45,981 nt of DNA. It comes from Maricaulis sp. Lineage in GTDB: Bacteria; Pseudomonadota; Alphaproteobacteria; Caulobacterales; Maricaulaceae. Positions 22,125-31,578 of the stretch are shown here, piece after piece (position 1 is the first letter of the stretch; the number at the start of each line of letters is the position of its first letter). Location: NCBI GenBank assembly GCA_002692855.1, contig NZMJ01000021.1:11535-57515 (forward strand). Reading direction: 5' to 3'. The position numbers and the translations under genes are program-made. The notes below the pieces were generated by a model, which was not told where the DNA came from, did not search any database, and saw only the letters and a program-made list of their open reading frames with translations.

Positions 22125-22820
22125 TCAGTCCAGTAGCCGCGGCGCAGCAATGTCGTCGAGATCGCCGAAAACGTTGGCAAAAGCGCCGCGCATGACGGCG
22201 GTGACGTCCTTGATCGAGGCGTCGATTCCAAGGTCGGCCAAGCTGGTCACGCCGTATTTCTGCTCGGATATTCCGCAGGGTGTGATGCCGGAAAAATGCG
22301 ACAAATCGGTCGAGACGTTCAGCGCAATGCCGTGAAACGACACCCATCGGCGCAAACGCACCCCGATGGCTGCAATCTTGTCCTCATATCCCTCACCCTT
22401 GTCGGGGCGGGCGACCCACACGCCGACACGCTCGCAGCGCCGTTCGCCGACGACATCGAACGCGGCGAGGGTCTGGATGATCCACTCTTCCAGCCCGCGC
22501 ACGAATTTCCGGGCATCGCGGCCCCGCTCGGTCAGGTTCAGCATGACATAGCCGACGCGCTGGCCGGGGCCATGATAGGTGTATTCCCCGCCGCGCCCGG
22601 TCTTGTGGACGGGAAAGCGGTCGGGTTGGAGCAGATCGCCGGCATCGGCGCTGGTGCCACCGGTATAGAGGGGCGGATGTTCCAGCATCCACACCAGCTC
22701 CGGCGCCTCGCCCGCGGCGATCGCGGCGGCCCGGTCTTCCATGAAGGTCACGGCCTGCGGGTAGGCGATTAATCCGTCAGAAACGGCCCACTGGGTTTTT
22801 TGCTGTGTCATCTCGGTCAT
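22125..22820 (-). CDS. lipB: Octanoyltransferase LipB
   Basis: Transfers octanoyl groups from acyl carrier protein to lipoyl domains, the first step of lipoate synthesis. The 231-residue product has '[19 protein letters not shown]' (about 73-91), the catalytic Lys148 in '[15 protein letters not shown]' and Cys182 in SGITPCGIS. These are the acyl-cysteine/lysine dyad of the family. An additional downstream start (MTQQKTQ) is possible. Its start codon overlaps a TTAACCAT box shared with the divergent FliN-like gene. Confidence 0.94.
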
Positions 22821-22826
22821 GGTTAA
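22819..22826 (-). promoter_or_regulatory. CtrA-type 8-mer TTAACCAT between lipB and the FliN-like gene
   Basis: On the reverse strand the bases read TTAACCAT, the short CtrA-binding motif described for Caulobacter-type bacteria. It lies 77 bases upstream of the FliN-like start codon and overlaps the lipB ATG. A second half-site TTAA at N7 spacing is not present, so binding is a prediction. Confidence 0.35.
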
Positions 22827-22902
22827 CCCGCCGGAAACGGCCTGTGCCTGAACATTGTGTGTGAAGCGATAAGTATCAAGCGCGCGAGCGAGGGGTGAGC
22901 CT

Positions 22903-23151
22903 GTGAGTCAGCTGGGATCCGTAAAGGTCGAAGTGAGCGTCGTTCTCGGTCGATCCTCCATGCCGATCCAGCAATTCCTGCGGATGGGCCGGGGCGCCGT
23001 CATCCCGCTCGATGCCCAGGAAGACGATCCGGTCTGGATCCTTGCGAACAACCATCCGATCGCGCGCGGCGAAATCCAGATCCAAGGCGACCGGGTGACC
23101 GTCAACATCCTCGGCCCGGCGGATGTGAACGCCTTCTATGCTGCGGCCTGA
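22903..23151 (+). CDS. Short FliN-like (SpoA-domain) flagellar switch protein
   Basis: An 82-residue protein consisting almost only of a SpoA/SURF domain: '[20 protein letters not shown]', 'GRGAVIPLD' and '[20 protein letters not shown]'. These match the C-ring protein FliN, which sets flagellar rotation direction. GTG 22903 is the start; GAGCGAGGGGTGAG lies just upstream. No other flagellar gene lies nearby, so it is an orphan, either the true FliN or a paralogue. Confidence 0.8.
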
Positions 23152-23170
23152 CTTTCCGCGGCATCGCGCA

Positions 23171-23200
23171 CTTCACAAGCCCTCATTCCGCTGCTATCTC
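23171..23200 (+). promoter_or_regulatory. Possible promoter of tRNA-Leu
   Basis: CTTCAC (23171-23176), an 18-base spacer, then TATCTC (23195-23200), ending 18 bases before the mature tRNA. It resembles alphaproteobacterial housekeeping promoters and sits where a stable-RNA promoter should. Confidence 0.35.
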
Positions 23201-23218
23201 GCACGGCCCTGACACGAT

Positions 23219-23305
23219 GCGGTCGTGGCGGAACTGGTAGACGCGCAGCGTTGAGGTCGCTGTGGGGTAAAACCCGTGGAAGTTCGAGTCTTCTCGACCG
23301 CACCA
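23219..23305 (+). tRNA. tRNA-Leu (anticodon GAG)
   Basis: An 87-base class II tRNA. The acceptor stem GCGGTCG (23219-23225) pairs with CGACCGC (23295-23301), followed by A and an encoded CCA (23303-23305). The anticodon stem CAGCG/CGCTG encloses the loop TTGAGGT, giving anticodon GAG (23253-23255), which reads CUC/CUU. A long variable arm (TGTGGGGTAAAACCCGTG region) and the T-arm AGTTCGAGTC complete it. No integrase or att-like duplication was seen beside it. Confidence 0.95.
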
Positions 23306-23316
23306 TGTCATCGAAG

Positions 23317-23344
23317 CGCCGCCCCTTCACGGGGCGGCGTTTTC
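23317..23344 (+). terminator. Terminator of tRNA-Leu
   Basis: CGCCGCCCC (23317-23325), loop TTCAC, GGGGCGGCG (23331-23339), then TTTTC. It lies 11 bases after the CCA end. Confidence 0.85.
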
Positions 23345-23474
23345 GATTCCGGGGCCCAGTGATGCAGCGGTCGATTATCCCCTGCGAAATTCCCGCGAAC
23401 ACCCTAATCCTGCCCTCGAAAAGCGCTACCTTCGTCGTTACTCTCACGAACGAAGCGCCTTTCAAGGATCCTCC

Positions 23475-24857
23475 ATGAGCGAAACCGCCGAACTTCCGAC
23501 GGAAGACTCCCCGCAAGGCGAGGTCGATGTCTCCAAGGCTGTCGCCCTGTCGGCGATGATCGAGGAGAATGACGCGGCGGCCATATCGCGTCTGATGGCG
23601 GGGCTTCACCCGGCCGATATCGCCGACCTGATCGAGCAGCTGACTGCCGAACAGCAGGAAGAACTGGCCAAGCTGGCGCCGGACATCCTGACCGGTGAAG
23701 TTCTCGCCAACCTGCAATGGGACACGCGCGAACTGGTCGCGGCTCATCTCGACCCGGCCCATCTCGCAGCCGCCATCCAGGAACTCGATTCGGATGACGC
23801 GACGCTGCTGGTCGAGGAACTCGACGATGCGCTGCGCGCGCAGGTCATGGCCGAGGTGCCGGAAGAAGACCGTGCGGCGCTGGAATCGAGCCTGTCCTTT
23901 GACGAGGAGACGGCCGGCCGCCTGATGCAGCGTGAATTCGTTGCGGCGCCGGACTTCTGGACGGTCGGCCACACGATCGACCACATGCGTGCAGCCGGCG
24001 ATGAGCTGCCGGAGCTGTTCTTCGATGTTTATGTCGTCAACACCGGTTTCGAACCGGTCGGAGCGGTCTCCGTCAGCCGCCTGATGCGGTCGAAGCGCGC
24101 GGTGATGCTGTCGGAGATCATGGACGAGATCCGCGTGCGGATTGACCCTGATACCGACCAGGAAGACGTCGCCTATTATTTCGAGAAATACCACCTGATC
24201 TCGGCACCGGTCGTCGATGCCGCCGGGCGGCTGTCCGGCATGCTGACGGTCGACGACATGGTCGAGGTCATCCAGGAAGAGAACAAGGAAGACATCCTGG
24301 CACTCGCCGGCGTCAATGAGGCCGGTCTGACCGATACGGTGATGGAATCGGTCAAATCACGCGCGCCGTGGCTGCTGGTCAATCTGGGTACGGCGGTTCT
24401 GGCCTCCGGCGTGATCGCGCTGTTCGAAGGCGCGATCTCGCAACTCGTGGCACTGGCGGTGCTAATGCCGATTGTCGCGTCGATGGGTGGCAATGCTGGC
24501 ACCCAGTCGCTGACCGTTGCGGTGCGGGCAATCTCGTCGCGCGACCTGACGTCGGCCAATGCCCGGCGCGTGATCTGGCGCGAAGGCATGACGGGCGCGT
24601 TCAACGGGCTGATCTTTGCGGTGGTGATGGGGCTCGTGGCCGGGTTCTGGTTCCAGAACTGGGCGCTTGCCGGGGTGATTGCCGCGGCGATGATCATCAA
24701 CCTGGCCTGTGCCGGGCTGGCCGGAATTCTCGTCCCGCTGGGGCTGAAGCGATTCGGCGCAGACCCGGCGGTTGCCTCGTCGGTTTTCGTGACCACTGTT
24801 ACCGATGTGGTCGGCTTCTTCGCCTTCCTCGGACTTGCCGCTATGGTGCTGCTCTAG
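23475..24857 (+). CDS. mgtE: Magnesium transporter MgtE
   Basis: Mg2+-gated magnesium channel of the inner membrane. The 460-residue product has the N-terminal superhelical domain (about 25-135, 'LHPADIADLIEQLTAEQ'), two CBS domains (about 145-270, ending 'MLTVDDMVEVIQEENKEDIL') and a five-helix pore domain with 'MGGNAGTQSLTVAVRAIS'. The 130-base leader after the tRNA terminator contains inverted CTTCG/CGAAG-type repeats (about 23430-23460), but no M-box riboswitch was recognised. Confidence 0.95.
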   Translation: MSETAELPTEDSPQGEVDVSKAVALSAMIEENDAAAISRLMAGLHPADIADLIEQLTAEQQEELAKLAPDILTGEVLANLQWDTRELVAAHLDPAHLAAAIQELDSDDATLLVEELDDALRAQVMAEVPEEDRAALESSLSFDEETAGRLMQREFVAAPDFWTVGHTIDHMRAAGDELPELFFDVYVVNTGFEPVGAVSVSRLMRSKRAVMLSEIMDEIRVRIDPDTDQEDVAYYFEKYHLISAPVVDAAGRLSGMLTVDDMVEVIQEENKEDILALAGVNEAGLTDTVMESVKSRAPWLLVNLGTAVLASGVIALFEGAISQLVALAVLMPIVASMGGNAGTQSLTVAVRAISSRDLTSANARRVIWREGMTGAFNGLIFAVVMGLVAGFWFQNWALAGVIAAAMIINLACAGLAGILVPLGLKRFGADPAVASSVFVTTVTDVVGFFAFLGLAAMVLL

Positions 24858-24886
24858 CGGGGCGTTCAATCTGATCGGGTAGTTCA

Positions 24887-25834
24887 ATGTTGCGTCACTG
24901 GTTTGTTTTCGGCCTGTCTCTGGCCGCCATTGTTTCCTCTGCCGCCTTTGGCGACGGCGAATGGTCTGACGGGCCGCGCCTGCAGGACCCACGTTCCGGC
25001 CTGGCTGCGGTCGAATTCGAGGGCGCGATCTATGTCGCCGGCGGAGCGGGCCTGACCCAGCCGCGCGAAGAGGTCGAATATCTCGACCTGGCGTTGGGCG
25101 AATGGCGGGATGCCACGCCGCTGCCCGCCGGTCTCGAACGCTTTGGTCTCGCGACCATCAACGGCCGTATCTACGCCGCCGGAGGCTATGCGGCGCGTGA
25201 AGGCGTGCGTCCGATTGCCGACATGTGGTCCTACGACCCGGCCTCGGGCGTCTGGGCTCGCGAACCCGCCATGCCGGGTCCGAAGGCATCCTTCCAGCTG
25301 GTCGCAACGCAGGACCGCCTGTTCGCCATTGGCGGCGAGACCGGCGAGGGCGTGACCTATGCCTTCGACCCCGAGGCGCAGGAATGGGAAGAATTCGACG
25401 CGCCGGAACACGTCGCACGGCGCGGCGCTTCGGCGGTATTCACTGACGGGCTGATCTACCTGATCGGCGGGGCACGTTCCGGTGCCGCTTCGAGCCGCGT
25501 CGATGTGCTGGACCCCGCCACCGGCGAATGGAGCGAGCGCGCAGAGATGCCTTCGCCGCACGCCGGTCATGCCACGGCCGTCGTGGAAGGCCGCATCCAT
25601 GTCTTCGGTGGGCGCGGCGCCGATCTCAGCCAGACGCTGAGCGATCATCTCGTGTACGACATCGCCGCTGACCGCTGGGAGAATGCCGAGGGCTTGCCCG
25701 CGCCGCGTACCGATGCCGCGGCTGCCGTGATCGGAACGCGCATCTACCTCATCGGGGGCGGCGCAGGAGGCGGGTTTTTCGCGCCCTTCACCGCAGTCGA
25801 CGAGACCGACATTTATTCCGAGGGTCTGCGCTAA
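24887..25834 (+). CDS. Exported kelch-repeat beta-propeller protein
   Basis: A 315-residue protein with a signal peptide (MLRHWFVFGLSLAAIVSSAAFG) and about six kelch repeats. These are recognised by paired glycines: 'IYVAGGAGL', 'IYAAGGYAA', 'LFAIGGETG', 'IYLIGGARS', 'IHVFGGRGA' and 'IYLIGGGAG', each followed by a Tyr/Trp spacer such as 'GEWRDATPLPAG' and 'GEWSERAEMPSPH'. It is probably periplasmic. It lies 29 bases after mgtE and 63 bases before spmX. The role is unknown. Confidence 0.87.
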   Translation: MLRHWFVFGLSLAAIVSSAAFGDGEWSDGPRLQDPRSGLAAVEFEGAIYVAGGAGLTQPREEVEYLDLALGEWRDATPLPAGLERFGLATINGRIYAAGGYAAREGVRPIADMWSYDPASGVWAREPAMPGPKASFQLVATQDRLFAIGGETGEGVTYAFDPEAQEWEEFDAPEHVARRGASAVFTDGLIYLIGGARSGAASSRVDVLDPATGEWSERAEMPSPHAGHATAVVEGRIHVFGGRGADLSQTLSDHLVYDIAADRWENAEGLPAPRTDAAAAVIGTRIYLIGGGAGGGFFAPFTAVDETDIYSEGLR

Positions 25835-25897
25835 ACGGCGTCCGGCTTGCAGATGACATCCGTGGAGCCCCCAAAGGCGTCCCGGATTGGAACATCG

Positions 25898-27316
25898 ATG
25901 AAGCTGCGACTTAAATCCTCATCGGCTGCCCGCTCCCTGATCAGGGAGTACGAGCCCTTTCACGCCGTCGCCGAACGCGATGCGGATGGACGCTGGACGG
26001 TGGGGTATGGTCACCGCGCCGGAGCGCGCGAAGACACAACGGTCAGCCGCGACGATGCCGATCTCCTTTTGATCTATGACGTGCTGCAGGCCGAGCGCGC
26101 AATCGACGAGACAATCACCGAGGACTTGCAGACGCCGCAGCGTGACGCGCTGGTCGCCTTTGCCCTGGGGATCGGACTGACGGCGTTCCGTCGCAGCGCC
26201 GTTGTGCGGTTGATCAACAAGGGACGCTGGAGCGCCGCAGCCGACGCCATCGCTGCGTGGGGCGGCGGCGAGATCGGCCGGCACCTGGCCGAGCGCGACC
26301 TGTTCCGCACTGATTTGCCTGCCGATACCAGTTCGACGCCTGTCGAACTGGTGATCGAGGTCGAACATCCCGATCTGGACGACGAGACGCCCGTTACCGA
26401 GGTCGATGCCGAAACCGAAGGTGACGCAAGCGATCCCGATCCGGTTGGCATCGAACCATCCGCCAGTGACGATACGGATGACGCTCCGGCCGATGACCCG
26501 GAATCAAGTGAAGCGCCGGAAGCGCCCGCCGAGACGGAAATCGCCGACGAACCGGCGGACGAAGTCGCCGTCCCCGCTCCGCAAGCCGTCGCATCACGCC
26601 CGCTTCGCAGCGCTGTCGCCGAACGGGTGATCGCCCGCATGCGGTCCCAGCTCGCGATCCGCGAGCCAGAGCCGGTCGAGGACGTACAGGCAGCAACCAG
26701 GGACGACGACACCGAAGCGGATCTTCCCGACGACACCGCCATGAACGGTCCGGTCGGGTATGTCTTTGCCGAGGCCGCCGAAGCGGAGCTCGATGACGAC
26801 ATCCTGGTCCCCGAAGCGGAAGAGACGCCCGGGCCTCTTCGCAGTGAGCCCCCTGAGACCGTTGAATTACCCGATCAGCCGATTGATGCACTGCCGGTCG
26901 TGGCAGGCGCCGCGGCAACGGGTGAGGTGGGTCATGCCAACGGCTTGTCGCGCGCCGGGAACCCTTCGGACGGCGATGTCGAAATCGAAACGGCGGACGA
27001 GGACGAGGGCCTTCCTGTGCCTGAAGACATTTCGCCGGAGTTTGAAGCCGGTGCCTTCGTGCCCCGCCGGAATGGCTGGGCCAATGGTGATGATTCTCCT
27101 GCACCGCAGGCGGCGAGTTTCCCGACCGGAACCGTGTCAGTCCTGGGGATCGGCATCCTGGCCTTTGGCGTCGGCGTCTGGGATACGGCTTCGCGCTGGG
27201 ATGCCTATTACACAGGCGATGTCTGGCCGTTTGGCCCTGCGACTGCGGCAGCAGGATTTGTCCTGACGGCGGCGGCCTCGATCGCCCTTATCGGGCGGAC
27301 GATGCGCAAAAGCTGA
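25898..27316 (+). CDS. spmX: SpmX-like polar muramidase-domain membrane protein
   Basis: In Caulobacter, SpmX localises the DivJ kinase to the stalked pole and links polarity to stalk growth. The 472-residue product has the three SpmX parts. First is an N-terminal GH24 lysozyme-like domain (about 8-130) with 'EPFHAV', 'GRWTVGYGH' and 'TPQRDALVAFALGIGLTAFR'. Second is a long acidic, low-complexity region (about 135-405). Third are two C-terminal membrane helices (about 412-430 and 447-466). Glu19, Asp28 and Thr34 give the E-8-D-5-T spacing of active phage lysozymes. ATG 25898 starts the lysozyme homology. It is not part of a prophage; the neighbours are chromosomal. Confidence 0.85.
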   Translation: MKLRLKSSSAARSLIREYEPFHAVAERDADGRWTVGYGHRAGAREDTTVSRDDADLLLIYDVLQAERAIDETITEDLQTPQRDALVAFALGIGLTAFRRSAVVRLINKGRWSAAADAIAAWGGGEIGRHLAERDLFRTDLPADTSSTPVELVIEVEHPDLDDETPVTEVDAETEGDASDPDPVGIEPSASDDTDDAPADDPESSEAPEAPAETEIADEPADEVAVPAPQAVASRPLRSAVAERVIARMRSQLAIREPEPVEDVQAATRDDDTEADLPDDTAMNGPVGYVFAEAAEAELDDDILVPEAEETPGPLRSEPPETVELPDQPIDALPVVAGAAATGEVGHANGLSRAGNPSDGDVEIETADEDEGLPVPEDISPEFEAGAFVPRRNGWANGDDSPAPQAASFPTGTVSVLGIGILAFGVGVWDTASRWDAYYTGDVWPFGPATAAAGFVLTAAASIALIGRTMRKS

Positions 27317-27374
27317 CGTAAACGTCACCTTCGTCCGCTTGACCCCTCGGGGGTAATGCGCCATTTCCCCGCGC

Positions 27375-28547
27375 ATGATCCCGAACCAATACCCCTCGAT
27401 GAATTTCGATCTTGGCGAAACCGCCGAGATGATCCGTGACACCGTACGCAGCTTTGCGTCCGATGAGCTGGCGCCGCGCGCCGCCGAAATCGACCGCACG
27501 GATGAATTTCCGGCCGACCTGTGGCGCAAGATGGGCGATCTGGGCCTGCTGGGCATCACGGTCGAGGAAGACTGGGGCGGCACGGGGCTCGGCTATCTCG
27601 AACACGTCGTCGCGATGGAAGAAATTTCCCGGGGTTCGGCCTCGGTGGGCCTGTCCTACGGCGCCCACTCCAATCTGTGCGTCAACCAGGTCCGGCGCTG
27701 GGCCAATGACGAGCAAAAGCATCGCTTCCTGCCGGGCCTTATCTCGGGCGAGAAGGTCGGCGCTCTGGCGATGTCCGAACCGGGGGCTGGCTCCGACGTG
27801 GTGTCGATGCGCCTTAAAGCGGTCAAGCAGGGCGACCGCTATATCCTCAACGGTTCGAAGATGTGGATCACGAACGGTCCGTCCGCGGACGTGATCGTGG
27901 TCTATGCGAAGACGGACCCGGACGCGAATTCGAAGGGGATCACCGCCTTCCTCGTCGAGAAGGGCATGAAGGGGTTCTCGATTGCGCAGAAGCTCGACAA
28001 GCTCGGGATGCGCGGCTCTGAAACGGGCGAGCTGGTCTTTGAGGACTGCGAAATCCCGGAAGAGAACATCATGGGGCCGCTCAATGGCGGCGTAAAAGTC
28101 CTGATGTCAGGCCTCGACTACGAACGGGCTGTGCTCTCGGCTGGTCCGATCGGCATCATGCAGGCCTGCATGGACGTGGTTCTGCCCTATGTTCACGAGC
28201 GCAAGCAATTCGATCAGCCGATCGGCAATTTCCAGCTGGTGCAGGGAAAACTGGCCGACATGTATGTCCGGATGAATGCTTCACGCGCCTATGTTTACGC
28301 CGTTGCGAAGGCATGCGACCGGGGCGAGACGACCCGCAAGGATGCGGCGGGTGCGATCCTTTACGCCGCAGAATCGGCGACCCAGCTGGCGCTCGATGCG
28401 ATCCAGTTGCTCGGCGGCAATGGCTATATCAATGAGTATCCGACCGGACGATTGCTGCGCGATGCGAAGCTTTACGAGATCGGTGCCGGGACCAGCGAAA
28501 TTCGCCGCTGGCTGATCGGACGCGAGCTCTTTTCAGAGACGCGCTGA
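27375..28547 (+). CDS. ivd: Isovaleryl-CoA dehydrogenase
   Basis: FAD-dependent dehydrogenase that converts isovaleryl-CoA to 3-methylcrotonyl-CoA in leucine degradation. The 390-residue product has the acyl-CoA dehydrogenase N, middle and C domains, with '[13 protein letters not shown]' and '[20 protein letters not shown]'. The catalytic base appears to be Glu250 in '[13 protein letters not shown]', the position specific to isovaleryl-CoA dehydrogenases, while the usual C-terminal Glu is replaced in '[12 protein letters not shown]'. An alternative start at Met9 is possible. It is the first of the leucine genes spread over the next 12 kb. Confidence 0.92.
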
Positions 28548-28622
28548 CCGCCTTTTTTCTGCAAGTCATGGAACCAAATGGCGATTGTTTCGCTTGAACA
28601 AGCAGTTCAAGGGGAAAATTCC

Positions 28623-29141
28623 ATGCGCACCATGCTTATGATTACCGCCGCCAGCCTGTTTGCCGTCGCCTGCAGCGATACCGACATGCCGTCCGGCGAA
28701 GAGATGGAAAACGACGCCGAGCAGGCTGTCGAAGCTACCGGGAATGCTCTGGAAAGCGCAGGCGACGCCGTCGTCGATGCTGCCGAGCGTGCCGGAGAGG
28801 AAATGGACGAGATGGGCGAGGACATGCCCGTCCGCGAAGTCAATGGCCGCTGGGGCATCACGTCGGCTGCCTGCAGCATGGACAATGACATGCGCGACGG
28901 CGTCATCGTGATCTCCCGCTACACGATCGCGATGGGGCTCGACCAGTGCGCCATCCAAACCGTCGATGTCGGCGCTGATGGCTACACCCATTTCGTCACC
29001 GAATGCGAAGACGGTGAGGGCGGTGGCTCCTACATGCGTGATTTCCACGTCATGCGGACCGGCGACACCCTGTCATTCGACAATCTCGACATGGGCCGCC
29101 AGGAAGAATATGTCCGCTGCACGATGGATGACGAGCGCTAA
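28623..29141 (+). CDS. Small acidic lipoprotein with amphipathic helical region
   Basis: A 172-residue exported protein with a lipobox-type signal (MRTMLMITAASLFAVAC). Residues 25-65 are strongly acidic and Ala-rich with heptad character ('AEQAVEATGNALESAGDAVV'), followed by a globular part with four Cys after the lipid Cys (AACS, QCAI, TECE, RCTM) that could form two disulfides. The ATG at 28623 is favoured by the signal and by AAGGGG upstream. No family was recognised. It abuts the next gene as TAATG. Confidence 0.7.
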   Translation: MRTMLMITAASLFAVACSDTDMPSGEEMENDAEQAVEATGNALESAGDAVVDAAERAGEEMDEMGEDMPVREVNGRWGITSAACSMDNDMRDGVIVISRYTIAMGLDQCAIQTVDVGADGYTHFVTECEDGEGGGSYMRDFHVMRTGDTLSFDNLDMGRQEEYVRCTMDDER

Positions 29142-29851
29142 TGGCCTTTGATGACCTGAAGGCGGTTTTCGTCAATTGCACGCTGAAGCGTTCGCCCGAC
29201 ACGTCCAACACTGAAGGCCTGATGAAGGTCGCGCAGGCGATCATGGACAAGCAGGGTGTGAAGACGGAGGTGATCCGGCTGGTGGATCACCCCGTCGCGC
29301 CCGGCGTCTATCCCGACATGACCGAACATGGCTGGCCGGTCGATGCCTGGCCGGGTCTGTGGAAGCGGATCAAGGCGGCGGACATTCTGGTCGTGGGCTC
29401 ACCCATCTGGCTGGGCGAGGAGAGCTCGGTCTGCCGGGTTCTGATTGAACGGCTCTACGGTCAGTCCGGTGACACCAATGACAAGGGCCAGTACGTCTTT
29501 TACGGCAAGACGGGCGGCTGTGTGATCACCGGCAATGAGGACGGTATCAAGCATTGCAGCCAGACCATCCTCTATGCGCTCCAGCACATCGGCTACACCA
29601 TCCCGCCCCAGGCCGACTGCGGCTGGATCGGCGAAGCGGGCCCAGGGCCTTCCTATTGCGATGAGGACAGCGGCGGTCCCGAAAACGAGTTCACCCAGCG
29701 CAACACGACCTTCATGGCGTGGAATCTCATGCACATGGCGCGGATGCTGAAGGATGCCGGCGGCATCCCGAGTGAGGGCAATTCGCGTGTGGCATGGGAC
29801 AAGGGAGAGCGTTTCGACCATCCCAACCCCGAATACCGTTCGGGCGACTAG
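29141..29851 (+). CDS. Flavodoxin-fold NAD(P)H-dependent FMN reductase-like protein
   Basis: A 236-residue cytoplasmic flavodoxin-fold protein: 'LKAVFVNCTLKRSPDTSNTEGLM' at the N-terminus binds the flavin phosphate, 'ILVVGSPIWLGEESSVCRVL' is the second flavin loop, and 'GKTGGCVITGNEDGIKHC' the third. The pattern fits the NADPH-dependent FMN reductase/flavodoxin_2 group. It shares one base with the preceding lipoprotein gene (TAATG), and its stop overlaps that of the converging patatin gene. The substrate is unknown. Confidence 0.82.
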   Translation: MAFDDLKAVFVNCTLKRSPDTSNTEGLMKVAQAIMDKQGVKTEVIRLVDHPVAPGVYPDMTEHGWPVDAWPGLWKRIKAADILVVGSPIWLGEESSVCRVLIERLYGQSGDTNDKGQYVFYGKTGGCVITGNEDGIKHCSQTILYALQHIGYTIPPQADCGWIGEAGPGPSYCDEDSGGPENEFTQRNTTFMAWNLMHMARMLKDAGGIPSEGNSRVAWDKGERFDHPNPEYRSGD

Positions 29852-31578
29852 CTGAAAATCTTCGACCGAATGTCGTCGTCGGCTTCGTCGAGCGCGCGCA
29901 TTGCGGCTTCGTAGCCGGACTGGATCGTGTCCTCAAACCGCTTCCATTCCCGCAGATCGGTATCGATTTCGGGCAGGGCGACGAGATCGGCGGCTTTCAG
30001 GAAGCTCTCGTGGCGGTCGACCATCGTTCCGGCGGTGGCGGCGCGCATCAGCAGGGACGCGATGGGCGGCGGTTCTCCGAAGCCGTGCTTGCGAATCCAG
30101 CCGAAGAAGCTGGGCGGATTTTCGAAATCCTTCGCATTCACACCACTGGCGCGCGTGACATCGCAGCCCACGTTGGCGCCGCGGTGGAAGGCCCGCATTT
30201 GCTCGGAAGGGAAGTTGGTGAAAACCGCTCCATCAACGAGCAGGCTGTCCCCCTCGACGACCGGAGGCAGGATGCCCGGCAGGGCGATGGAGGCGCGCAG
30301 GGCATGACGCAGCAGGCCGCGCCGGTGGATATGCGGCCGCCCCGTCGACAGGTTCGACGACACGCAGAAATAGGGCCGCGTCATGTCGGCGATCTCGATG
30401 TCGCCGAAATGCTTTTCAAGCCGGTGATCGACCTTGTCACCGCGCGCCAGCGAGACGACCGGCAATTGCCAATCCGACAATGGGTTGGAATCGACGAAGG
30501 CATCGCGAATGCGTTCCACGATTTCTTCGTGGCTCCATTCCAGTCCTTCGCTGGCGGCGAGAATGGCCCCCATCGACGCCCCGCACAGGAAATCGAATTC
30601 AAGACCCGATGCCTCAAAGGCCTGCATCGCGCCGATATGGGCATAGGCGCGTGCACCGCCGCCCGACAGCACCAGCCCCAGTGAACGGCCCGAGAGGGTC
30701 CGCGCCAGCCGCTTCAGGTCCGCCGTCGAACCTTGCCGCCAATGGAAAATCCGCGCCGCGTCGGCGGCGTCCATCCATTCCTGGGGGCGGGCGGCGCGTG
30801 CGACACCGTCATGGTGGAGGAGCACAACATCGAGCAGTTTGAGATTGGTGGCCGGAGACGGGTCAGCGGGAATGAGTGGACCTGACGGCCGCGCGTCCGA
30901 GCGGGCAAACAACCAGACCCGGTCAGCCCGGCCCATTGCTCGGCGAGCCCAGTGGGGATTGCCAAGACGGGCAGTCAGGAAGACCAGGTCATGCCCGGAT
31001 TCAAATTCATCCAGCCTGGTGCCCGCGAAATCGGCGCATTCCTCGCCGCCGATCGCGACGGACACGCCTATGGCCTCGAGTGCGTCCTTCAGGGCGCGGG
31101 CACGGTATTCCAGATCAATGGTTGGCGAAGACGCGATGAAGGCGAAGACGCGTGGCTCTGATCCGCCGCGCTGCGGTCCTGACCGAAGCCGCCGAAGCAT
31201 CATCTTGGCCAGTTCGCGCATTAGCGACGGGTGCTTGTCGGCGATCCGGTCAAAGCTGGCGCGGGGCAGGCGCACGACCTCGCTGTCGCGCATGGCATAG
31301 ACGCTGGCCGAGTGCGGGCGTTCTTCCAGCATCGACATTTCGCCGACGGGCTCGCCCTGCCGGATATAGCCCAGGAGATTGGGCCGTCCGAGCGCGCCAT
31401 TGCGGAAGGCCGCCAGCGCGCCGGAGCGCAGCAGGTAGAACGCATCCGCCGGTTCGCCCTCGCCAAACAGCATCGCCCCTGCGGGCAGGCAGAACCATTC
31501 CACCTCGTGCTCAACGGCTTTGAGAGCCGCCTTGCCGATGTCGTCGAAGAATCCGAGGAAGGAAAGGTTGAGGGGCAT
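29848..31578 (-). CDS. Patatin-like phospholipase with N-terminal cyclic-nucleotide-binding domain
   Basis: A 576-residue protein of the bacterial neuropathy-target-esterase (NTE) type. Residues about 10-125 form a cNMP-binding domain ('LLRSGALAAFRNG', 'GEPVGEMSMLEERPHSASV'). A linker region follows, then the patatin domain (about 300-470) with the oxyanion loop SGGGARAYAHIG, the nucleophile Ser335 in GASMG, and Asp449 in LLVDGAVFTN completing the dyad. It probably cleaves acyl esters of phospholipids at the inner membrane face. It is divergent from the next small secreted-protein gene. Confidence 0.9.
   Translation of the reverse strand: MPLNLSFLGFFDDIGKAALKAVEHEVEWFCLPAGAMLFGEGEPADAFYLLRSGALAAFRNGALGRPNLLGYIRQGEPVGEMSMLEERPHSASVYAMRDSEVVRLPRASFDRIADKHPSLMRELAKMMLRRLRSGPQRGGSEPRVFAFIASSPTIDLEYRARALKDALEAIGVSVAIGGEECADFAGTRLDEFESGHDLVFLTARLGNPHWARRAMGRADRVWLFARSDARPSGPLIPADPSPATNLKLLDVVLLHHDGVARAARPQEWMDAADAARIFHWRQGSTADLKRLARTLSGRSLGLVLSGGGARAYAHIGAMQAFEASGLEFDFLCGASMGAILAASEGLEWSHEEIVERIRDAFVDSNPLSDWQLPVVSLARGDKVDHRLEKHFGDIEIADMTRPYFCVSSNLSTGRPHIHRRGLLRHALRASIALPGILPPVVEGDSLLVDGAVFTNFPSEQMRAFHRGANVGCDVTRASGVNAKDFENPPSFFGWIRKHGFGEPPPIASLLMRAATAGTMVDRHESFLKAADLVALPEIDTDLREWKRFEDTIQSGYEAAMRALDEADDDIRSKIFS

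What the first reader, a model, noticed from the sequence alone, without database searches (positions are those of the whole stretch)
25898..27316. SpmX with a complete phage-lysozyme catalytic triad
The N-terminal domain has Glu19, then eight residues, Asp28, then five residues, Thr34: the E-8-D-5-T spacing of active GH24 phage lysozymes. As I recall, SpmX arose from a co-opted phage lysin, and in Caulobacter the middle Asp is not conserved (a Leu lies at that place) and hydrolysis is reduced. If so, this version has either kept the ancestral active site or regained it, and may still cut peptidoglycan while acting as a polar scaffold. The acidic linker and two terminal membrane helices are intact, so it is not a prophage lysozyme.
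Basis: partly seen in the sequence, partly recalled or inferred. Interest (0 to 1): 0.7.

Follow-up and report, generated by a model that had tools for sequence, protein, structure and literature searches.

The report
Polar scaffold with revived lysozyme triad
A bacterial protein that is likely a cell-pole scaffold (SpmX) carries all three classic lysozyme catalytic letters, but at least one of them was likely regained late on a domain that has lost other parts of the lysozyme cleft and is predicted to sit inside the cell, so it probably organises the pole rather than cutting cell wall.

Summary
ORF 25898-27316 is an intact SpmX ortholog of a Maricaulaceae (Hyphobacterium-like) bacterium. It has a GH24 domain with E19-(8)-D28-(5)-T34, an acidic disordered linker and two C-terminal membrane helices, in the recurring mgtE-kelch-spmX-acyl-CoA-dehydrogenase locus.

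The full triad with this spacing is rare: 2 of 154 SpmX genes from the order and 11 of 262 SpmX-like proteins. Leu stands at site 28 in 99 of the 154.

The trees put these proteins deep inside the SpmX clade, so the Asp was regained, not kept. Asp arose at least four times; Thr34 and even the catalytic Glu19 vary in the same branch.

The domain has lost 7 of the 17 positions that never vary among 11 lysozymes compared, including the Gly12 and Tyr18 equivalents and the FNxG Asn. Its C-lobe hairpin is 11 residues shorter than in most other SpmX. It scores lower against the lysozyme profile than a Caulobacter-type SpmX that lacks the Asp (77.7 against 121.7 bits). Charges predict a cytoplasmic domain.

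Best reading: an ordinary SpmX polar scaffold with re-acquired triad letters, probably not a working muramidase. A re-armed enzyme is not excluded (about 7%).

The parts
25898..27316 (+). spmX ortholog, 472 aa plus stop
   Evidence: intact ORF; inside the SpmX clade; recurring locus
25898..26320 (+). GH24 (phage-lysozyme-like) domain, residues 1-141
25952..25954 (+). Glu19, catalytic Glu equivalent (T4L Glu11)
   Evidence: alignment
25979..25981 (+). Asp28, regained triad Asp (T4L Asp20)
25997..25999 (+). Thr34, triad Thr (T4L Thr26); kept or regained is unsettled
26258..26293 (+). Trp121 to Glu132: shortened C-lobe hairpin, 10 residues between them against 17 or 21 in 11 lysozymes and 21 in SpmX outside Hyphobacterium and Maricaulis
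   Evidence: VIA-align pairs model 6-139 with 6h9d 6-150
26279..26281 (+). Arg128, likely salt-bridge partner of Glu19
   Evidence: Arg in 262 of 262 SpmX-like proteins; an Arg-Glu bridge in T4L-like lysozymes is described in PMC8228626 (passages)
26339..26371 (+). conserved motif PVELVIEVEHP, residues 148-158, just after the domain
26321..27124 (+). acidic, Pro-rich linker predicted disordered, residues 142-409
   Evidence: composition; low pLDDT over most of it
26612..26653 (+). conserved helix in the linker, residues 239-252 (candidate oligomerisation helix)
   Evidence: helix 239-252, block 241-250 pLDDT 81; conserved within Hyphobacterium-like rows; Perez et al. predict an isolated linker helix in Caulobacter SpmX (PMC5347347, passages)
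27125..27193 (+). membrane helix 1, residues 410-432
27230..27310 (+). membrane helix 2, residues 445-471
23475..24857 (+). mgtE neighbour (synteny marker)
   Evidence: PF01769; found in 129 of 154 genome loci
24887..25834 (+). kelch-repeat protein neighbour (synteny marker)
   Evidence: PF01344; synteny
27375..28547 (+). acyl-CoA dehydrogenase neighbour (synteny marker)
   Evidence: PF00441/PF02771; within 1.5 kb in 93 of 154 genome loci

Best explanation
The ORF is a SpmX ortholog whose GH24 domain carries E19-D28-T34, but the Asp was likely regained late, inside the Maricaulis/Hyphobacterium branch, on a domain that has lost 11 hairpin residues and other lysozyme-invariant positions, and the protein is predicted to work as a cytoplasmic PopZ-binding, DivJ-recruiting polar scaffold that would not cut peptidoglycan. 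Shown here: membership in the SpmX clade, the recurring locus, the rarity of the triad, the nested place of the triad clade, the lost cleft positions and a confident model of the domain. Inferred: in this branch Glu19 is mostly kept for structure, as a bridge to the invariant Arg128 and as part of the PopZ/DivJ-binding face, while sites 28 and 34 became free to vary, and Asp and Thr fell together once with the phage spacing and once with a one-residue shorter spacing (P0016). The membrane helices and the C-terminal charges would hold the domain on the cytoplasmic side, where it meets PopZ. The linker would concentrate DivJ, as described for Caulobacter (PMC8849385, passages). Untested: binding, localisation and lytic activity of this very protein.
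For: Clade: careful tree of 97 rows, triad clade 100/96, inside 23 rows at 99/92, inside 41 rows at 100/100; phage lysozymes far off. An AU test rejects joining the triad rows with the lysozyme rows (p 2.8e-21). Locus: acyl-CoA dehydrogenase just downstream in 17 of 18 loci of genera g1 (the window's) and g7 (Maricaulis-type) and in 93 of 154 genome loci overall; mgtE in 129 of 154. Regain: marginal state of the SpmX root (without family f5) at site 28 is Leu 0.75-0.98 and of the nearest 37-row ancestor Gly 0.88-0.99; four separate gains of Asp. Keeping Asp along the stem costs 23 changes against 18. Lability: Asp in 4 of 154, full triad in 2 of 154; catalytic Glu replaced by Q, V or T in 8 of 262 SpmX-like proteins, all 8 with the shortened hairpin, while Arg128 is 262 of 262. 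Degenerate cleft: 10 of 17 lysozyme-invariant positions kept, hairpin 11 residues shorter than in SpmX outside this branch, Pfam score 77.7 bits against 121.7 for a Caulobacter-type SpmX and 151-177 for two phage lysozymes. Topology: charge bias for N-in/C-in in 140 of 145 SpmX, 5 ties, none opposite. The PopZ family PF10691 is in the same genome. Among the 95 family genomes that the tool tallied as at least 90% complete and at most 5% contaminated, the 3 without SpmX also lack PF10691, against 4 of 92 with SpmX.
Confidence: 0.77

Rival explanations
1. A re-armed enzyme: Asp28 (and perhaps Thr34) was regained under selection, and the domain again cuts peptidoglycan or a cytoplasmic precursor at the pole while also acting as scaffold.
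For: E-8-D-5-T in every row of the clade (12 of 12); Asn107 present in all 12 as in lysozymes while 22 of 26 other Hyphobacterium-like rows lack it; intact fold at high pLDDT; purifying selection; 12 or more D+T rows in only 1.7% of simulations.
Against: Gly12 and Tyr18 equivalents, the FNxG Asn, the second Arg of RR and 11 hairpin residues are gone; no hydrophobic N-terminal stretch (the best 19-residue window of residues 1-140 lies at residue 85, inside the fold) and N-in topology predicted; relatives lost even Glu19; no activity was detected for Caulobacter SpmX (PMC5347347, passages).
Confidence: 0.07
2. Asp28 and Thr34 are held by selection for a non-catalytic reason, such as a tighter beta-hairpin or a better PopZ/DivJ contact, and the likeness to the phage triad is incidental.
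For: Conserved in the clade; the catalytic face matters for PopZ and DivJ binding in Caulobacter, where E19R abolished both in vitro (PMC5347347, passages).
Against: Both sites take many letters in close relatives (one search counts 11 and 12 changes outside the clade), so strong constraint there is not general.
Confidence: 0.12
3. The ancestral phage active site was kept without a break in this lineage and lost separately in the others.
For: All three letters match the phage motif; Thr34 may have been kept; Asp is among the open states of the node that also takes in family f5.
Against: Needs 23 instead of 18 changes at site 28; Leu at the SpmX root at 0.75-0.98; the triad clade is nested inside starred branches mostly without Asp.
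Confidence: 0.03
4. A prophage lysozyme, or a SpmX whose domain was swapped for a phage one.
For: Triad letters only.
Against: AU test p 2.8e-21 against a triad-plus-lysozyme clade; bacterial locus recurs in relatives; no phage family among the seven neighbours scanned.
Confidence: 0.01

Closest known systems
SpmX of Caulobacter and Asticcacaulis (lysozyme-family localization factor, NF051871; solved domain 6h9d)
   Same: GH24 domain at the N-terminus with the Glu at the same place, acidic Pro-rich linker, two C-terminal membrane helices, mgtE and acyl-CoA dehydrogenase as neighbours in the Caulobacter-type genus
   Different: Asp28 present where those have Leu; hairpin 11 residues shorter; Pro20 for Gly and Gly91 for Asn; NF051871 score 96 bits against the cut-off of 700
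GH24 phage lysozymes (P21, P22, DLP12, AcLys 6et6, PHAb11 9kbs)
   Same: fold and E-X8-D-X5-T motif (motif in PMC8228626, passages)
   Different: predicted membrane-anchored host protein, no phage gene among seven neighbours scanned, cleft positions and hairpin residues lost
SpmX of other Hyphobacterium and of Maricaulis
   Same: same shortened hairpin, Pro20 in most and invariant Arg128
   Different: site 28 is mostly G, also N, Q, T, E, A, S, H, R and now and then D; site 34 is mostly V, also I, T, L, R, S, K, A

Membership tests
SpmX | N-terminal GH24 lysozyme-like domain | tested here: met
SpmX | acidic, Pro-rich disordered linker | tested here: met
   72 D+E, 11 K+R, 31 P in residues 142-400; low pLDDT
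SpmX | two C-terminal membrane helices | tested here: met
SpmX | place inside the SpmX clade | tested here: met
SpmX | orthologous locus shared with Caulobacter-type spmX | tested here: met
   mgtE and acyl-CoA dehydrogenase flanks; in family f3 36 and 33 of 38 loci
SpmX | naming rule only, not a defining feature: score over the NF051871 cut-off of 700 bits | tested here: not met
   96.3 bits; in the order only 18 of 398 genomes reach it, so it marks near-Caulobacter sequences
SpmX | binds PopZ and DivJ, polar localisation | not testable with these tools
   PF10691 (the PopZ family, by recall) is encoded in the same genome; no binding test possible
active GH24 phage lysozyme | catalytic motif Glu-X8-(Asp/Cys)-X5-Thr | tested here: met
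   motif as given in PMC8228626 (passages)
active GH24 phage lysozyme | residues conserved in T4L-like lysozymes: Gly12 and Tyr18 equivalents | tested here: not met
   Pro20 and Glu26; Gly and Tyr in 11 of 11 lysozymes
active GH24 phage lysozyme | Arg that bridges the catalytic Glu | tested here: met
   Arg128 aligned to an Arg in 11 of 11 lysozymes; the bridge itself was not measured
active GH24 phage lysozyme | C-lobe hairpin length and FNxG Asn | tested here: not met
   10 residues where 11 lysozymes have 17 or 21; Gly91 for Asn
active GH24 phage lysozyme | muramidase activity | not testable with these tools
   needs protein and sacculi
prophage endolysin gene | phage gene neighbourhood | tested here: not met
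   seven neighbours scanned (22125-31578): six match Pfam families that are not phage families, one has no match; the locus recurs in relatives

The most novel reading that the evidence does not exclude
A co-opted and disarmed phage lysin has re-armed itself: in one lineage the polar scaffold SpmX regained its complete Glu-Asp-Thr active site long after losing it, on a trimmed cleft, and now both organises the pole and cuts glycan there, showing that the detoxification of a domesticated lysin is reversible.
Probability: 0.07. Interest if true: 0.75.

Novelty: new member of a known kind. Interest (0 to 1): 0.33.

Why it matters
SpmX is known as a phage lysin turned into a bacterial scaffold (by recall, Randich et al. 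2019). This branch shows what can happen to an abandoned active site: the Asp and Thr positions drift through many letters, the catalytic Glu is sometimes lost, an Arg that likely bridges it never is in the set examined, and the full triad can come back by few changes. It warns against calling an enzyme active from a catalytic triad alone, and gives a natural series of domains (with and without Asp, Thr, Glu and hairpin) in which scaffold and enzyme roles can be told apart at the bench.

Tried and rejected
Prophage lysozyme or phage domain swap: rejected by tree, AU test and locus. Asp retained from the ancestor: disfavoured by tree and site reconstruction. A relative of the whole protein in viral contigs: 18 pattern stretches, none confirmed. 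SpmX lost in the same-genus genome G009: rejected, its two ends were found at two contig ends. Codon tests of selection on sites 28 and 34: not possible, as DNA was held for only two members of the clade (window and RI_22); the pairwise values are for whole regions, and the linker dS is near saturation.

Sampling limits. The SpmX set from the other families of the order was taken from the printed top of the list (382 of 398 genomes matched), so it leans towards strong matches; from the window's family 76 of 130 matching genomes were used. The protein lists were capped: one search printed the best 120 of 2,969 matches, another the best 120 of 131, all 58. In one search the 140 rows were chosen by hand: up to a set number per genus, with 16 proteins (mis-started, fragmentary or close to others) and the duplicate window locus L076 left out; P0027, which has lost Glu19, was among them, but L192 of the same kind stayed. 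In one search 43 more rows were dropped as near copies or long branches. That PF10691 is the PopZ family is recall; among 14 control genomes it rings in Caulobacter vibrioides alone. PMC11594527 (passage) lists 6H9D among proteins with a conserved triad; the alignment shows Leu and Met there, against that statement.

Literature. Papers were seen as passages only or as search listings. The key paper on SpmX as a detoxified phage lysin (Randich et al. 2019, Curr Biol) is not held and is cited from recall; its reference line was seen in PMC12364344. A search for SpmX with Hyphobacterium found 0 papers, and SpmX with 'catalytic triad' 2 papers, of which one was looked into; in those searches I found no report of this triad.

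Full report

It is SpmX. Searches of one genome per species found a SpmX-profile match in 382 of 398 genomes of the order and a match to the Maricaulaceae alignment in 130 of 137 genomes of the window's family; of the seven misses, one (G009) has the gene cut by contig ends. Named relatives are Hyphobacterium, Maricaulis, Oceanicaulis and Glycocaulis, among others. In the tree the window protein sits in a triad clade of 12 rows (quick tree of 140 rows, support 98) or 6 rows (careful tree of 97 rows, 100/96), inside the Maricaulaceae branch with Maricaulis and Hyphobacterium (41 rows, 100/100), inside SpmX. Joining the triad rows with the lysozyme rows is rejected (AU p 2.8e-21). The neighbours mgtE, kelch protein and acyl-CoA dehydrogenase recur. 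The dehydrogenase lies within 1.5 kb downstream in 93 of 154 genome loci (one of them at under 50% identity) and 32 of 33 named loci, in 17 of 18 loci of genera g1 and g7, and in 33 of 38 loci of family f3; mgtE is in 129 of 154. Against this, whole genera and all 8 loci of family f5 show no dehydrogenase in the stretch held.

How rare is the triad. Across 154 SpmX genes the letters at 19/28/34 are E-D-T in 2 (window and RI_22), D at 28 in 4, Leu at 28 in 99, and Glu at 19 in 153. Among the 264 proteins that three protein searches listed (two of the lists were capped at 120), I set aside P0057 (phage-like) and the fragment P0058; 12 of 262 align as E-D-T. One of these, P0016 of Hyphobacterium lacteum, has the spacing 8 and 4 rather than 8 and 5, which leaves 11 with the phage spacing. 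None of the 120 listed relatives of a Caulobacter-type SpmX has Asp or Cys at the site: 116 are E-L-T, 3 lack letters at one or more of the three sites but have Leu at 28, and 1 has no letters at any of the three (best 120 of 2,969).

Kept or regained. With sites 28 and 34 taken out of the tree, an equal-rates reconstruction gives Leu at the SpmX root without family f5 (0.75-0.98 over three rates), Gly at the ancestor of the 37 nearest rows (0.88-0.99) and Asp at the ancestor of the triad clade; four separate gains of Asp fall inside SpmX. The older node that also takes in f5 is open between Asp and Leu. Forcing Asp along the stem raises the changes at the site from 18 to 23. Thr34 is less clear: Thr at the SpmX root, Val favoured over Thr at the 37-row ancestor, and tied parsimony. 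Simulation at the rates of this branch gives at least one D-and-T row in 37% of runs and 12 or more in 1.7%; the clade size depends on how many near copies the databases hold.

The rest of the cleft. In an alignment with 11 GH24 lysozymes (10 phage records and P0057), 17 columns never vary among the lysozymes. The window keeps 10 (E19, G38, L58, A84, G93, S100, N107, G124, R128, E132) and differs at 7 (P20, E26, A87, G91, the loop Gly, E125, H129). Between Trp121 and Glu132 it has 10 residues; the lysozymes have 17 or 21, and SpmX outside the Hyphobacterium-like and Maricaulis rows 21. PMC8228626 (passages) names Gly12 and Tyr18 of T4 lysozyme among residues conserved in this fold, and an Arg that bridges the catalytic Glu. 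Here the Gly and Tyr equivalents are Pro20 and Glu26, and the Arg is likely Arg128, present in 262 of 262 SpmX-like proteins. Likeness to the lysozyme profile falls from 151-177 bits (two phage enzymes) to 121.7 (a Caulobacter-type SpmX without Asp) and 77.7 (the window, with Asp). So by overall profile this domain is further from an enzyme than the Caulobacter-type one, in spite of the Asp. Eight of 262 proteins, all with the shortened hairpin, have Gln, Val or Thr in place of Glu19; six more lack letters there.

Where it sits and what it does. No hydrophobic N-terminus is seen, and the charges around the two membrane helices predict both ends inside (window: 0, 1 and 3 K+R before, between and after; 140 of 145 scorable SpmX of 154 in the same sense, 5 ties). 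PMC5347347 (passages) reports for Caulobacter SpmX that the lysozyme domain binds PopZ and DivJ, that E19R abolishes this in vitro, that no lytic activity was detected, and that the protein is likely largely cytoplasmic. PF10691, by recall the PopZ family, is encoded in the window's genome. Among the 95 family genomes that the tool tallied as at least 90% complete and at most 5% contaminated, the three without SpmX (G272, G327, G366) also lack PF10691, against 4 of 92 with SpmX (Fisher p 2.5e-4); over all 137 it is 4 of 6 against 13 of 131 (p 0.002), with G009 counted as having SpmX. G272 and G327 share a genus, so this is about two independent events. I therefore read the protein as a PopZ-bound scaffold, and Glu19 and Arg128 as structural and binding residues.

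What remains open. The domain is under purifying selection (dN 0.14, dS 0.92 against RI_22), the triad is constant in its clade, and Asn107, an invariant lysozyme residue that 22 of 26 other Hyphobacterium-like rows lack, is present in all 12 rows. A re-armed enzyme is therefore not excluded, and only an assay can settle it. I searched the literature library nine times; the searches closest to this triad showed no report of it, but most subscription papers are not held.

Noticed in passing
genomes G272, G327 (genus code g10) and G366 (g4): Small Maricaulaceae genomes (1.7-1.8 Mb) lack both SpmX and PF10691 (PopZ); G400 (88% complete) also lacks both.
   Followed up: partly
L049:10439-12493 reverse strand (also pieces at the right ends of L047, L052, L070): About 2.3-4.9 kb downstream of spmX in Maricaulis and relatives, on the other strand, lies a protein with up to three GH24-like stretches, one with an E-D-T site by eye. 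The PF00959 search of the window's genome shows no protein with several such stretches.
   Followed up: partly
SpmX-like proteins P0020, P0027, P0233, P0246, P0247, P0252, P0253, P0254: Catalytic Glu19 itself replaced by Gln, Val or Thr while Arg128 stays; all have the shortened hairpin.
   Followed up: partly
G009 C3:4-87 and C2:564259-564342: The two ends of spmX of this same-genus genome lie on two contigs, an assembly break and not a loss.
   Followed up: yes
genome G000, contigs C42, C47, C67: The assembly is 4.07 Mb against 2.2-2.8 Mb in its genus with 5.9% contamination; GH24 genes on these contigs may be phage lysozymes of other bacteria, an impression from reading C42 and C67.
   Followed up: no
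window 26339-26371 and 26612-26653: Two conserved islands in the linker: PVELVIEVEHP right after the domain, and the helix AVAERVIARMRSQL.
   Followed up: no
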